A stretch of 64,000 nucleotides of DNA from Methanolinea sp. (GTDB taxonomy: Archaea; Halobacteriota; Methanomicrobia; Methanomicrobiales; Methanospirillaceae): NCBI GenBank assembly GCA_030055515.1, contig JASFYI010000001.1, positions 62,001 through 126,000 of the forward strand. The letters run 5' to 3'. The translations under genes were made by a program, and so were the position numbers. The notes beneath the pieces are model-generated. The model did no database searches. It saw only the letters and a list, made by a program, of their open reading frames with translations, and was not told the origin of the DNA. Of this stretch, positions 59,651-64,000 are shown in pieces (positions within the stretch are counted from its first letter, which is position 1; each line of letters begins with the position of its first letter).

Positions 59651-60205
59651 TCAGGAGACCCGTTGCCTCCTCCACAGCACGATGGAGATCCCCGCGGTCA
59701 GGCCGAGGAACACGGAGGGACCAAAGCCAGGGATGTTTCTCGCGGGGGGTTTCCGGAAAGTGAGCTCCGTGGAACAGACCGCGATGCTGTCGGTGTCCGT
59801 GAGCCGCTCGAGATTCAGGGGAACGTTCACGACGTAAATCCGGTACGTCCCGGGGACGAGGTTGCCGGCGATGAAAGACGTGTCCCAGTCGTAGATGAAC
59901 GATCCGTCCGGGTTGACGAACGCAGAAGTGAAGTATCCTTGGCCCGCCTTGAGATTCACGTTCTCGAGCGTGACGCCGGCCCTGTCGAGGCCGGGTCCCG
60001 TCACGAAGAGGAAGACGGCGAGCAGGTTCTTCCCGTCGGTCGTCCCGTTGATGTGGATGCGATCGCCGATGTGCGCGTCGCGGGGAGTGGCATCGATGGA
60101 TATACCGGCGGTTCCCGCACCCGTGAGGAGAGCGAGGACGAGGAGCGAGAGGATCACCCAGCGGGCCATGCGTTTTCGTAAATATGGGAGGGATGGAGTC
60201 ATCAT
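59651..60205 (-). CDS. Secreted surface protein with PGF-CTERM sorting signal
   Basis: The 184-residue protein has an N-terminal signal segment (KRMARWVILSLLVLALLTGAG). An all-beta domain follows (ISIDATPRDAHIGDRIHINGTTDG; GYFTSAFVNPDGSFIYDWDTSFIAGNLVPGTYRIYVV), as in Methanomicrobiales surface proteins. The C-terminus is PGFGPSVFLGLTAGISIVLWRRQR, matching the archaeal PGF-CTERM motif (PGFG, hydrophobic helix, Arg cluster). Archaeosortase A is known to process such tails, so the protein is likely lipid-anchored. Start could also be 60169 or 60256. Two N-glycosylation-type NGT sites lie in the beta domain. Confidence 0.75.
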   Translation of the reverse strand: MMTPSLPYLRKRMARWVILSLLVLALLTGAGTAGISIDATPRDAHIGDRIHINGTTDGKNLLAVFLFVTGPGLDRAGVTLENVNLKAGQGYFTSAFVNPDGSFIYDWDTSFIAGNLVPGTYRIYVVNVPLNLERLTDTDSIAVCSTELTFRKPPARNIPGFGPSVFLGLTAGISIVLWRRQRVS

Positions 60206-60305
60206 GGTTCTGGTGCCGCCACGCGCCCGTTCCCGGGGAGGTGTGGAAGCGGGCACCCTCTCTCCCCGCGGCCGGAAGCGCGCGCCTCTCCACGGCGTCG
60301 CCGCT

Positions 60306-61610
60306 TCAGAATTCGACGACCATGACCGCCTCTTCCTCCTCCCGGAGTTCCCCCTTGAGGTGTCCCGCGTCGAACCGGTACTGTTCCGAGGGATTGTAGT
60401 CCTCGTAGAGCTCGCACTTGTCGAGGACGTCGATGAACTCCTTGAGGAATATCCGGGGGATCACGTCGACCCTCCCGCCGAACTTCTCGGTCACCCGCGA
60501 GATCATCGCGCGGATGAAGCGGTGCGACACCCTGCTCCGGTCCACGTCCGAGTACGCCTCCCCGTAGATCTCCATCACCTTCAGGGCGACCTGCTCGAGT
60601 TTCCTCGCGTCGAACTTCGCGAGCGCGATCTGGGGCTGGCGCGGGTTCCTGAATCCTTCCTCGGGCTTGACGATGCATATCCTGTCGTAGAGGGGAGGAA
60701 GCGTCCTTATTCCCCTCGGGCCGTCGAAGAACGCGGGCGTGCCCGTGAAGAGGAAGTACGCGTGCGAGAGGTCTCCCCTGTCGAGCGACTCGACGATGGC
60801 CTGGAGCACGTGGTAACTCTTCTCCCGCTGGTTGCGGGGGAGGGACTGCGTCGTCTCGAGCTCGTCGAGGGCGACGGCAAGGCCCTTGTATCCCGCGCTC
60901 ACGATGATCCTCACGAGTCCGCGGAGGAACGTGAATGCAGACGCCTCGTCGATCTCCCCCCGGATCCCGGCCTTCTGCTTGAAGTCCCGGCCCACGTTCG
61001 TCTCCGCGCAGATCCACCCGATCGCGGACTGGGCGGTCTGGAAATCCCCCTCGTTGCCCGCGCGGTAGTACGTGCGGAGCGCGGCGGCAAGCGAGCTGTT
61101 CAGCTCGGATATCCCGGCAAGGGCGGTCTCTATCTCGGCGAGCGTGGCCTTCTCGAGGACATCCTCGGGGATGGTCCTATCGCTCACCCTGAGGATCCTC
61201 TCCTCTATTCCAAAGAGCCACGTGTCGACGATGGACTTGAGCGCGTGCTCTTCCTCGCGGGTCCGGAGGGTTCCGCATATCTGGCGGTAAACCTCCCGGA
61301 ACTTGTGGAGGGGGCAGGTGGGTGAGACCACGACGTGCGCCGTCACGAAGCCCATCTCCCGCGCGATCTCGAGCGACCGGGCGACGAGGAACGTCTTGCC
61401 GCTCCCGTACTCGCCCCTGACGAACTTGAGGTCGCCCCCGCCCTGCGAGACGTAGTCCAGCTGCGCCCTGATCGTGTTCTCCTCCATCTCGAGCCCGACG
61501 GCGATCCGCTCGAGGCCGCTCCCGGGGACAGTCCCCCTCCGCAGGGCATTGATGATGTTCTGGCTCTCGAGCTTCCGGCTCCCCGCCACTTCAGGCACCC
61601 TTGTAGGCAT
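60306..61610 (-). CDS. BrxD-like (DUF2791) P-loop ATPase
   Basis: The 434-residue ATPase resembles the BREX ATP-binding protein BrxD/DUF2791. N-terminal RKLESQNIINALRRGTVPGSGLERIAVG, Walker A GEYGSGKT at residues 66-73, Walker B GLAVALDELETTQ near residue 240, and YFLFTGTPAFFD (sensor-like). The C-terminal part is winged-helix-like (GGRVDVIPRIFLKEFIDVLDKCELYEDY). No other BREX gene (PglX, PglZ, BrxC, BrxL) is visible. The start at 61610 lies inside the TPR gene end (20-bp overlap), so the two products probably work together. Confidence 0.78.
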   Translation of the reverse strand: MPTRVPEVAGSRKLESQNIINALRRGTVPGSGLERIAVGLEMEENTIRAQLDYVSQGGGDLKFVRGEYGSGKTFLVARSLEIAREMGFVTAHVVVSPTCPLHKFREVYRQICGTLRTREEEHALKSIVDTWLFGIEERILRVSDRTIPEDVLEKATLAEIETALAGISELNSSLAAALRTYYRAGNEGDFQTAQSAIGWICAETNVGRDFKQKAGIRGEIDEASAFTFLRGLVRIIVSAGYKGLAVALDELETTQSLPRNQREKSYHVLQAIVESLDRGDLSHAYFLFTGTPAFFDGPRGIRTLPPLYDRICIVKPEEGFRNPRQPQIALAKFDARKLEQVALKVMEIYGEAYSDVDRSRVSHRFIRAMISRVTEKFGGRVDVIPRIFLKEFIDVLDKCELYEDYNPSEQYRFDAGHLKGELREEEEAVMVVEF

Positions 61611-63408
61611 ATATCTCCCCGTTCTTTCCAAATCCTCTCTTCTCTATCAGTACGACCCCTTTACTTGACATTTTCTGCACGAGCCGGTTGACCATCCCCG
61701 CGACCCTCCGCGAGCCGAGCAGTGCCCGCAGCTCCATCTCGCTCGCCTGCCCGCGGTCCCTGAGGAACTCGATTATTTTCCTCTCGTTCTCGTCGAGGTC
61801 AAGCCCCGCGAGGAGGGCATCGGGGGACTCGGCGGGAACGTGCCCGCCCTGCAGCGTGCCCTTCAGGACAGGGACCTCGGAGAGGGCCTTCTCCTTGCAT
61901 TCCGAAAGGAGGGCGAGGAAATCTCCCGGCCTCACATCCCTTGCCCACGCGGGGACGACGTCCAACCCTGACAGGCATGCCCTCTTGCACGACAGCCAGT
62001 CCCGCTGCGCGAGCGCGAGCGTCCCGGAGAGCAGGTGGAGCGCCGCGAGGAGTTCCAGCCCCCTCGAGGGGAGAACCTCGGAGAATCCATCAAGCTTTGT
62101 CCTGAGAGCCTCTAGCAGCCTCGGCATCCGGAGGAGGGCCTCCCTCTGCCCGAGCGAGAACTCCGCGATTCGCACGAGATCCTGAACCTTCCTCGCGGAA
62201 GAAACGACGTGCATCATGACCTTCTCGGCCTCCCTCACGTCGCCGCCCGCCGCGCAGAACCGGGCGTAGTGCGGGCCCCCCTCGAGGGAATCGCTCCTGT
62301 ACGCCCTGTAGTACCATGCCCGCGCCTCCTTCAGGTCCCCCGCCTCCTCGTAGAACTGCGCGACCGAAAGGAGCGAGAACGGGTCAGTCCTCATCGCGAG
62401 CGCCTCGCGCAGGATGCGCTCGGCATCCCCGTGCGGGAAGTACGTCTGCAGGAATACCCTGAATGCGCGGAGGATCTCCCTCGCGAGGGCGGGATCTTCC
62501 ATCGAGTCGAGTTCCTGCTCGAGGAGGCTCCTGTAGCAATCCCGGGCCTCTTCCCGCCGCTGCGCGAGAGCGAGGAGCCCGCACCCGGTGAGGCGGAACC
62601 TCCCTTCAGGCATTCTTTCCGAGAGCAGGGGGCCGAGCGCGGAGAGAGCCCTCCCGTAATCCCCGCCCTCTTTCAGGAAGAGAACGTAATCGTGCCGTAG
62701 ATCCCTGTCTCCCGTCAGCTCCACGAGCCGGGGGTACTCCTCGCCCGCCCTCTCCCTGTCGACGCGCGCGAGCGCTCCCATGGAGAGCCTCGCGTAGAGG
62801 GGATCGCGGGTCTTCTCGAACAGGTCGCGCGCGCACTCCGCGGCCTCCCTGAACTTCCCGCACGCGGAGAGGATGGAGACGTACACGTCGTCGGGAGGGA
62901 GCCTGCCCCCCGGGGCACCCTCCCACGCCACGAGTGCCTCGGCCGGCCTCCCGGCGAGGAAGAGGGCCACCGAGAGCTGGCGCGCGTCGTCCGGCCTATG
63001 GGACTGCGAGAGGAGGTGCGAGTAGGCCGGGATTGCCTTCCATGGATCGCCTGACCGGAGGACGTACGCCGCGAAGTTCCGCAGGGCATCGGTGTTCCCA
63101 GGGTCGAGCGCGACTGCCCGCGCGTACTCGGCGAGTGCGCCCTCTTCCCCCCTCGCCTCGAGGATGCGCCCGAGGTAGCCGTGCACGTGCGATGCACCGG
63201 GGAGGATGTGGGCGAGGTCGCGGAAGTGCGCCTCTGCCTCCTCGAGCCTCCCGAGATGAAAGAGGTTGGCGGCGAGGAGGACCGCGACCGAGGGGTCGCC
63301 CCGGCCCTCCCCTAGCTCCCTGCAGACCGCGAGAGACCGCTCGTACTCGCCGCGCTCAAAGAGGGTGAACGCCTCCTCCCTGCGGGTTTCCCGGTCCTCC
63401 GCGGTCAA
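61591..63408 (-). CDS. TPR-repeat protein with C-terminal winged-helix domain
   Basis: The 605-residue protein starts with TTG at 63408, overlapping the GT2 stop as TTGA. Tandem TPR-like helix pairs fill residues 1-520 (EEAFTLFERGEYERSLAVCRELG; AANLFHLGRLEEAEAHFRDLA; YLGRILEARGEEGALAEYARAVALDPGNTDALRN; AQFYEEAGDLKEARAWYYRAY). The last 70 residues (ENERKIIEFLRDRGQASEMELRALLGSRRVAGMVNRLVQKMSSKGVVLIEKRGFGK) form a MarR/TrmB-like winged helix. A frame running on to the window edge is antisense-like to GT2 and is rejected. It likely scaffolds or targets the downstream ATPase. Confidence 0.82.
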   Translation of the reverse strand: MTAEDRETRREEAFTLFERGEYERSLAVCRELGEGRGDPSVAVLLAANLFHLGRLEEAEAHFRDLAHILPGASHVHGYLGRILEARGEEGALAEYARAVALDPGNTDALRNFAAYVLRSGDPWKAIPAYSHLLSQSHRPDDARQLSVALFLAGRPAEALVAWEGAPGGRLPPDDVYVSILSACGKFREAAECARDLFEKTRDPLYARLSMGALARVDRERAGEEYPRLVELTGDRDLRHDYVLFLKEGGDYGRALSALGPLLSERMPEGRFRLTGCGLLALAQRREEARDCYRSLLEQELDSMEDPALAREILRAFRVFLQTYFPHGDAERILREALAMRTDPFSLLSVAQFYEEAGDLKEARAWYYRAYRSDSLEGGPHYARFCAAGGDVREAEKVMMHVVSSARKVQDLVRIAEFSLGQREALLRMPRLLEALRTKLDGFSEVLPSRGLELLAALHLLSGTLALAQRDWLSCKRACLSGLDVVPAWARDVRPGDFLALLSECKEKALSEVPVLKGTLQGGHVPAESPDALLAGLDLDENERKIIEFLRDRGQASEMELRALLGSRRVAGMVNRLVQKMSSKGVVLIEKRGFGKNGEIYAYKGA

Positions 63409-64000
63409 CGGCGCACCACCTGCCTGACCCTGAGCCGGAGGAGCCGAGAGAGCATCTTCAGGCCATCCGTTCCCCTGACATGCGAGCTGCGCGTGTCGCA
63501 CCACGCGATCGGGTGTTCCCTCACGGAAAAACCCTTCTCCTTGAGCCGCCAGAGGAGTTCCACGTCGAACTCGAACCCCGTGGAGACCATCTCCCCGATG
63601 ACGGCGTCGATCGCCTGCTTCTTGAATACCTTCGCCCCGCACTGCGTGTCCCTGAAGGGAAGTCCGAAGAGGAGTCGCACGATACCGTTGAAGATCCGAC
63701 TCTCGAGGCGCCTGAGTAACCCCTGCCGCCGCTCGATGACGGCACCGGGTACCCAGCGGGACCCGATGACCGCGTCCGCGTCGCCGAGGAGGGAGAAGAG
63801 CTCCACCATCTGGGAGAAGGAGGTCGACGCGTCCGCGTCCACGTAGCCGACGAGGCGGCCGCTCGCCCTGCGCATCCCCTCGGTTATGGCGCCCCCCTTC
63901 CCGAGCCTCCCTTGACGGTGGACGCACGTGATGTTCATCCCGGGGTGGGCGCGGGCGAAGCGGTTGACGATCTCCGGGGTCCCGTCCTCTCCCTCGCACA
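63405..64000 (-). CDS. GT2 family glycosyltransferase, dolichyl-phosphate glucosyl/mannosyl type (5' end missing)
   Basis: The partial frame (about 198 codons in view) runs off the right edge. It carries GTPEIVNRFARAHPGMNI, GKGGAITEGMRRASGRLVGYVDADAS (donor loop and DxD-type DADAS), VIGSRW and RDTQCGAKVFKKQAI. FDVELLWRLKEKGFSVREHPIAW follows. This is the Alg5/DPM1-like pattern, loading a sugar onto a polyprenyl phosphate at the membrane for N-glycosylation. First visible gene of the leftward GT2-TPR-ATPase operon. Confidence 0.85.
   Translation of the reverse strand, partial: CEGEDGTPEIVNRFARAHPGMNITCVHRQGRLGKGGAITEGMRRASGRLVGYVDADASTSFSQMVELFSLLGDADAVIGSRWVPGAVIERRQGLLRRLESRIFNGIVRLLFGLPFRDTQCGAKVFKKQAIDAVIGEMVSTGFEFDVELLWRLKEKGFSVREHPIAWCDTRSSHVRGTDGLKMLSRLLRLRVRQVVRR

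What the first reader, a model, noticed from the sequence alone, without database searches (positions are those of the whole stretch)
60306..64000. GT2 - TPR/winged-helix - BrxD-like ATPase operon: candidate undescribed system
The three genes overlap (TTGA between GT2 and TPR; 20 bp between TPR and ATPase), so co-translation is likely. A BrxD-type ATPase without other visible BREX genes, coupled to a DNA-binding-capable TPR scaffold, could be a minimal defence or regulatory ATPase module. The link to a membrane sugar-lipid transferase is unexpected and may point to surface modification in response to a signal such as phage.
Basis: partly seen in the sequence, partly recalled or inferred. Interest (0 to 1): 0.7.

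Follow-up and report, generated by a model that had tools for sequence, protein, structure and literature searches.

The report
Domesticated BrxD ATPase–TPR pair, unlinked helicase
A group of methane-producing archaea permanently carries a motor protein from a bacterial anti-virus system, paired with a new scaffold protein and with its old helicase partner moved elsewhere in the genome, which suggests an immune helicase machine turned into a regular cell component whose job can now be tested.

Summary
The TPR/winged-helix and BrxD-like ATPase genes are real and overlap by 20 bp. The GT2 gene is only a chromosomal neighbour. The pair is a vertically inherited, single-copy unit of some Methanomicrobiales: of 393 phylum genomes, 55 have the ATPase, the same 55 have the TPR protein, always adjacent. 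GT2 is absent from 10 of 42 carriers and present in 11 of 19 non-carriers. The ATPase clade is sister to most bacterial type-2 BREX BrxD. Sampled BrxD relatives outside it nearly always sit with a BrxHI/SngC-type helicase (52/53 bacterial, 16/16 archaeal loci); here none does (0/59). That helicase was not lost: a distinct BrxHI-like clade is encoded elsewhere (in this genome on another contig), again in exactly the same 55 genomes, and its divergence tracks the ATPase beyond species divergence. One genome lacks the pair at a clean empty site while its congener keeps it. The genome has no PglZ and only one BrxC/BrxD-family gene. Best reading: a domesticated BrxD–BrxHI helicase-loader module with a DNA-binding TPR adaptor, probably for genome maintenance. 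Function is inferred; stand-alone antiviral immunity remains possible. Co-occurrence rests on about two independent evolutionary events.

The parts
60306..61610 (-). BrxD-like AAA+ ATPase (434 aa, ATG start)
   Evidence: PF10923 E 1e-129, NF033438 BREX_BrxD 407 bits > 350 cut-off, PADLOC BrxD 414 bits vs SngB 162; AF2 pLDDT 80; fold closest to archaeal Orc/Cdc6, Z 17
61392..61415 (-). Walker A motif GEYGSGKT of the ATPase (residues 66-73)
   Evidence: G66, G69, G71 and K72 invariant in orthologs and paralogs
60861..60872 (-). Walker B motif ALDE of the ATPase (residues 247-250)
   Evidence: D249 and E250 invariant in orthologs and paralogs
61591..63408 (-). TPR-superhelix protein with C-terminal winged helix (605 aa, TTG start)
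   Evidence: Pfam TPR families; AF2 pLDDT 91 with about 30 helices then a helix-helix-helix-strand-strand domain; ortholog adjacent to the ATPase in 55/55 genomes
61594..61827 (-). predicted winged-helix domain of the TPR protein (residues 528-605)
   Evidence: AF2 secondary structure; nine residues of the domain invariant in 24 orthologs; only weak HTH hits in Pfam
61591..61610 (-). 20-bp overlap of TPR 3' end and ATPase 5' end, likely translational coupling
   Evidence: sequence; exactly 20 bp in most of 27 orthologous loci
63405..64000 (-). GT2 family glycosyltransferase (continues outside the window to G000:C1:126109); neighbour, judged not part of the module
   Evidence: Pfam Glycos_transf_2 E 9e-17; presence not linked to the pair

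Best explanation
The pair is two thirds of a dispersed three-protein module: a BrxD-like AAA+ ATPase, a TPR/winged-helix adaptor co-translated with it, and a BrxHI-like SF2 helicase encoded elsewhere (in this genome G000:C2:200399-202531). The ATPase and helicase correspond to the BrxD-BrxHI dyad of type-2 BREX. In part of the Methanomicrobiales they were separated from the methylase/PglZ functions and fixed as vertically inherited core genes. Proposed mechanism (inferred): the ATPase, an Orc/Cdc6-type fold whose model ends without that family's C-terminal DNA-binding winged helix, gets DNA binding and targeting in trans from the TPR protein, and uses ATP to load or license the helicase on particular DNA structures such as blocked forks or damage. 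This would serve chromosome maintenance rather than phage restriction. Shown: gene identity, pairing, co-occurrence, unlinked helicase, vertical inheritance, purifying selection, intact motifs. Inferred: physical complex, helicase loading, DNA target, housekeeping role.
For: ATPase, TPR protein and helicase occur in exactly the same 55 of 393 genomes. TPR and ATPase adjoin on one strand in 55/55. The other sampled BrxD-family genes have a BrxHI/SngC-like helicase in the same locus: 52/53 bacterial and 16/16 archaeal loci, 0/59 in this clade. The unlinked helicase is one clade (SH-aLRT 100), separate from aLhr, SngC and bacterial BrxHI, and matches PADLOC BrxHI full length, 518 bits. ATPase and helicase distances correlate beyond pyrG (partial r 0.77, 20 genomes; 0.68 without the two fastest), above the controls GT2 0.25 and HisD 0.12. 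Clean empty site in G034, whose congener G023 has the pair. Vertical inheritance: Mantel r 0.85 with pyrG. ATPase dN/dS 0.04 in a close pair. Fold Orc/Cdc6, Z 17. Published proposal that BrxD loads BrxHI (PMC12839542).
Against: No complex could be predicted or tested. The named relatives are defence components. The presence pattern needs only about two changes on a pyrG tree, so co-occurrence has few independent events. The module is absent from whole families and from G034, so it is not essential to the order. The rate-covariation contrast is weaker against purF (0.77 vs 0.61, 11 genomes). The winged helix is net negative in some orthologs, so DNA binding is not assured. The helicase was not found in carriers G004 and G032, and G025 has it without the pair; these genomes are 67-86% complete.
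Confidence: 0.55

Rival explanations
1. Stand-alone innate immunity: ATPase, TPR adaptor and unlinked helicase form a constitutive anti-virus or anti-plasmid complex, like a BREX or Shango remnant that restricts without methylation.
For: Closest relatives are type-2 BREX BrxD; PglZ profile matches in 49/53 of those bacterial loci. The helicase belongs to a group that one study describes as a potentially distinct SF2 clade defined by immune functions, including SngC and BrxHI (PMC12278908). The TPR protein evolves fast (dN/dS 0.18 vs 0.04 for the ATPase in one pair), as a sensor might.
Against: No nuclease, methylase or PglZ in the locus; fixed housekeeping synteny, single copy, vertical inheritance, one module per genome in all 55 carriers; the helicase is unlinked, which is unusual for defence systems.
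Confidence: 0.27
2. Split STAND/MalT-like regulator: the ATPase is a signal-gated switch and the TPR/winged-helix protein its sensor and transcription factor; the helicase co-occurrence is incidental.
For: TPR superhelix plus C-terminal winged helix beside an AAA+/STAND-like ATPase; in f4 genomes a multi-PAS histidine kinase lies directly upstream of the TPR gene.
Against: The ATPase is firmly BrxD by profile and closest to Orc/Cdc6 by fold; the same 55 genomes hold the helicase and its divergence tracks the ATPase.
Confidence: 0.12
3. GT2-TPR-ATPase form a signal-responsive surface-modification operon.
For: Overlapping genes in this genome and many relatives.
Against: GT2 and pair presence are dissociated; GT2 stays in place when the pair is absent; little ATPase-GT2 rate covariation (0.25).
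Confidence: 0.03

Closest known systems
BrxD-BrxHI dyad of type-2 BREX (Pgl)
   Same: ATPase passes the BREX_BrxD equivalog cut-off and is sister to most bacterial BrxD (SH-aLRT 99); helicase matches BrxHI full length
   Different: No PglZ in the genome, no second BrxC/BrxD-family gene; ATPase and helicase unlinked; new TPR/winged-helix partner; vertical core genes instead of mobile defence loci
Shango (SngA-SngB-SngC)
   Same: SngB is a BrxD-family ATPase beside an SF2 helicase related to this one
   Different: Window ATPase scores 162 bits to SngB vs 414 to BrxD; true SngB/SngC-like pairs occur separately in relatives, e.g. L054, L056, L058
Archaeal Orc1/Cdc6 initiator and helicase loader
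   Same: AAA+ fold (Z 17 to A. pernix ORC2) and a proposed helicase-loading logic
   Different: Own C-terminal winged helix not seen; a winged helix is on the partner protein; not named Orc1/Cdc6 by sequence
Canonical archaeal Lhr helicase (aLhr)
   Same: Related SF2 helicase
   Different: A separate ~920-aa clade (SH-aLRT 100) present also in non-carriers; the module's helicase is ~720 aa and lacks the DEAD_assoc domain

Membership tests
BREX type 2 | BrxD ATPase | tested here: met
   NF033438 407 bits > 350 cut-off; all 26 aligned orthologs match that model
BREX type 2 | PglZ | tested here: not met
   no PF08665 match in G000; none beside the core loci by profile
BREX type 2 | BrxC ATPase | tested here: not met
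   only the window gene matches PF10923 over the cut-off in G000
BREX type 2 | BrxHI helicase adjacent to BrxD | tested here: not met
   0 of 59 core loci; a BrxHI-like helicase exists elsewhere, G000:C2:200399-202531
BREX type 2 | PglX methyltransferase and PglW | not tested
Shango | SngB-type ATPase | tested here: not met
   PADLOC BrxD 414 bits vs SngB 162; separate clade from SngB rows in the tree
Shango | SngC helicase adjacent | tested here: not met
   no helicase of this type in 59 core loci
Shango | SngA protein | not tested
   not searched genome-wide
Orc1/Cdc6 | AAA+ domain of the ORC/Cdc6 type | tested here: met
   VIA Z 17.0, 266 residues aligned, rmsd 3.6, to 1w5t_A
Orc1/Cdc6 | C-terminal winged helix in the same chain | tested here: inconclusive
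   best alignments to archaeal Orc/Cdc6 stop near chain residue 300 of about 390 and the model shows no strand-containing C-terminal domain
Dispersed BrxD-TPR-BrxHI module proposed here | all three genes in the same genomes | tested here: met
   identical set of 55 of 393 genomes
Dispersed BrxD-TPR-BrxHI module proposed here | physical complex of the three proteins | not testable with these tools
   no complex prediction available

The most novel reading that the evidence does not exclude
A previously undescribed archaeal genome-maintenance machine: an ATP-driven BrxD-family loader with a TPR/winged-helix targeting adaptor and a dedicated BrxHI-like helicase encoded elsewhere, showing that the BrxD-BrxHI pair works as a helicase-loading unit independent of BREX methylation and restriction, either domesticated from immunity or representing the ancestral cellular function.
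Probability: 0.4. Interest if true: 0.8.

Novelty: new variant of a known kind. Interest (0 to 1): 0.62.

Why it matters
The role of BrxD in BREX is uncharacterised; helicase loading has been proposed but not shown (PMC12839542). A conserved BrxD–helicase pair that persists without the rest of BREX, with a single new adaptor, is a natural minimal system in which to test that idea. It would also be a documented case of an immune ATPase–helicase pair becoming a core cellular component in archaea. Databases would currently name this protein 'BREX system ATP-binding protein BrxD', which misleads for these methanogens.

Tried and rejected
GT2 as part of the system: rejected by presence/absence, empty site and rate covariation. 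Hidden BREX locus next door: no; the right flank is pyrG, guaA, argD, SOD, hisC, and there is no PglZ in the genome. Shango: rejected by profile score and tree. 'Helicase lost and replaced by TPR': my first reading, overturned. The unlinked helicase as the ordinary archaeal Lhr: rejected by the tree. Foldseek with the TPR model gave only generic superhelical TPR proteins; winged-helix profile searches of Pfam and PDB gave nothing convincing. A paper search for DUF2791 found none, and the papers holding both Methanomicrobiales and BREX did not describe this pair in the passages shown.
Full report
WHAT IS THERE. The window is G000:C1:62001-126000 of a 1.76-Mb, 99% complete genome. On the minus strand lie, in order of transcription, a conserved 75-aa ORF, a GT2 glycosyltransferase (234 aa), a TPR/winged-helix protein (605 aa, 61591-63408) and a BrxD-like ATPase (434 aa, 60306-61610). 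The overlap is exactly 20 bp in most of 27 orthologous loci. The divergent neighbours are pyrG, guaA and argD; downstream is a predicted secreted protein and a tungstate-type ABC transporter (named from sequence, not searched).

THE ATPASE. It matches Pfam BrxC_BrxD (433 bits) and passes the NCBIfam BREX_BrxD equivalog cut-off (407 vs 350); PADLOC gives BrxD 414 and SngB 162 bits. Walker A (GEYGSGKT) and Walker B (DE) residues are invariant across orthologs and paralogs. The AlphaFold model (pLDDT 80) is closest to archaeal Orc/Cdc6 proteins, Z 17, with RdrA and BrxC also among the Foldseek matches. The best alignments stop before the Orc/Cdc6 C-terminal winged helix.

THE PARTNER. The TPR protein is a long TPR superhelix ending in a compact winged helix (pLDDT 91). 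The winged helix has nine invariant residues in 24 orthologs but no curated Pfam or PDB relative at convincing scores. It is basic in the Methanolinea protein (pI 9.5) but acidic in some families.

PAIRING. In a sample of 393 genomes of the phylum, 55 have an ATPase ortholog (at least 664 bits; the next group is at most 238 bits), the same 55 have the TPR protein, and in all 55 the two are adjacent on one strand. All belong to three of the families sampled in this order. In the 61-genome sample, 42 have both and 19 neither. GT2 behaves differently: 10 of the 42 carriers lack it at the threshold used and 11 of 19 non-carriers have it. The pair is the unit and GT2 is a neighbour.

EMPTY SITE. 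In genome G034 (3,544,738 bases, from memory the size of Methanospirillum hungatei JF-1) GT2 is followed directly by hisD, whereas its congener G023 reads hisD – ATPase – TPR – GT2 – pyrG. In families f2 and f5 the order is GT2 – HD/OB-fold gene with no pair.

ORIGIN. A tree of 97 ATPases places the archaeal clade (SH-aLRT 99) as sister to most bacterial BrxD (99), inside a group that also holds Virgibacillus and Fusobacteriaceae BrxD; SngB-type and other archaeal paralogs fall outside. The bacterial loci are BREX: a profile built from one PglZ matches in 49/53, and PF08665 coordinates fall inside 43 of 45 contig ranges, contig identity assumed. In 52/53 bacterial loci and 16/16 archaeal paralog loci a BrxHI/SngC-like helicase gene lies within the fetched locus; in 0 of 59 core loci. 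The direction (immunity to core, or the reverse) is suggested by the ATPase tree but not by the helicase tree, where the bacterial BrxHI form their own clade.

THE MISSING HELICASE. Searching relatives with a BrxHI protein revealed a ~720-aa homolog elsewhere in the genome, in G000 at C2:200399-202531. It matches PADLOC BrxHI over its full length (518 bits), has invariant helicase motifs, and forms one clade (SH-aLRT 100) separate from the ~920-aa archaeal Lhr clade, from SngC and from bacterial BrxHI. In 393 genomes it occurs in exactly the same 55 as the pair (at least 594 bits). In many families it sits near purF and a thioredoxin-like gene (named from sequence), not in a defence-like cluster. 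ATPase–helicase distances correlate after removing the pyrG signal (partial r 0.77, 0 of 2000 permutations; 0.68 without the two fastest genomes). With controls the values are 0.85 for ATPase–helicase vs 0.25 for ATPase–GT2 (14 genomes), 0.84 vs 0.12 for HisD (13), but 0.77 vs 0.61 for purF (11). ATPase–TPR covariation beyond pyrG disappears without the two fastest genomes (0.53 to 0.09), so that particular test supports the pair less than its adjacency does.

CAUTIONS. On a pyrG tree the presence pattern needs only two changes, so the perfect co-occurrence is far less than 55 independent observations; the key independent case is G034, which lacks the pair and whose best listed helicase hits are Lhr-type or weak, while G023 keeps all three. 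The 61-genome set has three imperfect cases (G004, G032 pair without helicase; G025 helicase without pair), all in genomes 67-86% complete. Permutation tests do not fully remove phylogenetic dependence.

MECHANISM. Type-2 BREX BrxD has been proposed to load or activate BrxHI (PMC12839542). Here the same two enzyme families persist without PglZ or a second BrxC/BrxD-family gene (PglX and PglW untested). The most economical model is an ATP-driven loader (BrxD-like), a DNA-binding or targeting adaptor in trans (TPR/winged helix) and a helicase. Housekeeping is favoured by single copy, fixed synteny among biosynthetic genes, vertical inheritance (Mantel r 0.85 with pyrG) and strong purifying selection on the ATPase (dN/dS 0.04 in a close pair). 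Immunity is not excluded. A transcription-regulator reading is weaker, and the glycosyltransferase link is contradicted.

NOVELTY. The components belong to known families; the combination (BREX-free BrxD, TPR/winged-helix partner, separately encoded BrxHI-like helicase, core and vertically inherited) was not found described in the papers I could search. I rate it a new variant of a known kind.

Noticed in passing
L003:10148-10372 (-), G000:C1:126148-126372, just right of the window: A 75-aa ORF conserved at 59-83% identity across Methanomicrobiales near pyrG and GT2, also present in genomes without the pair; no Pfam or NCBIfam hit.
   Followed up: partly
L049:9897-15479 (-), L051, L060, L062: In f4 genomes a 1,680-1,860-aa multi-PAS histidine kinase/response-regulator hybrid replaces GT2 directly upstream of the TPR gene, a possible sensory input.
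   Followed up: partly
L054, L055, L056, L057, L058, L155-L159: SngB-type ATPases beside SngC-like helicases (Shango-like) scattered in Methanomicrobiales and other archaea, separate from the core module; the three tested score as SngB.
   Followed up: partly
L152, L153, L154 (family f12 of the same phylum): A divergent archaeal BrxD/helicase pair scoring between BrxD and SngB (220 vs 194 bits for L153), the highest-scoring relatives of both core proteins outside the order within the phylum sample; context not studied.
   Followed up: no
G018 (L047, L187) and G023 (L043, L188): All three module proteins are unusually divergent in this lineage, whose relative G034 lacks the pair: a possible picture of relaxed constraint before loss.
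   Followed up: partly
L063:8430-9323, L042, L048, L050, L053, L064: A second, separate TPR-repeat gene often lies close to the pair or to pyrG; not part of the 55/55 pattern tested.
   Followed up: no
window 59651-60256 (-): A 201-aa predicted secreted or membrane protein downstream of the ATPase, conserved in several relatives; no Pfam hit.
   Followed up: no
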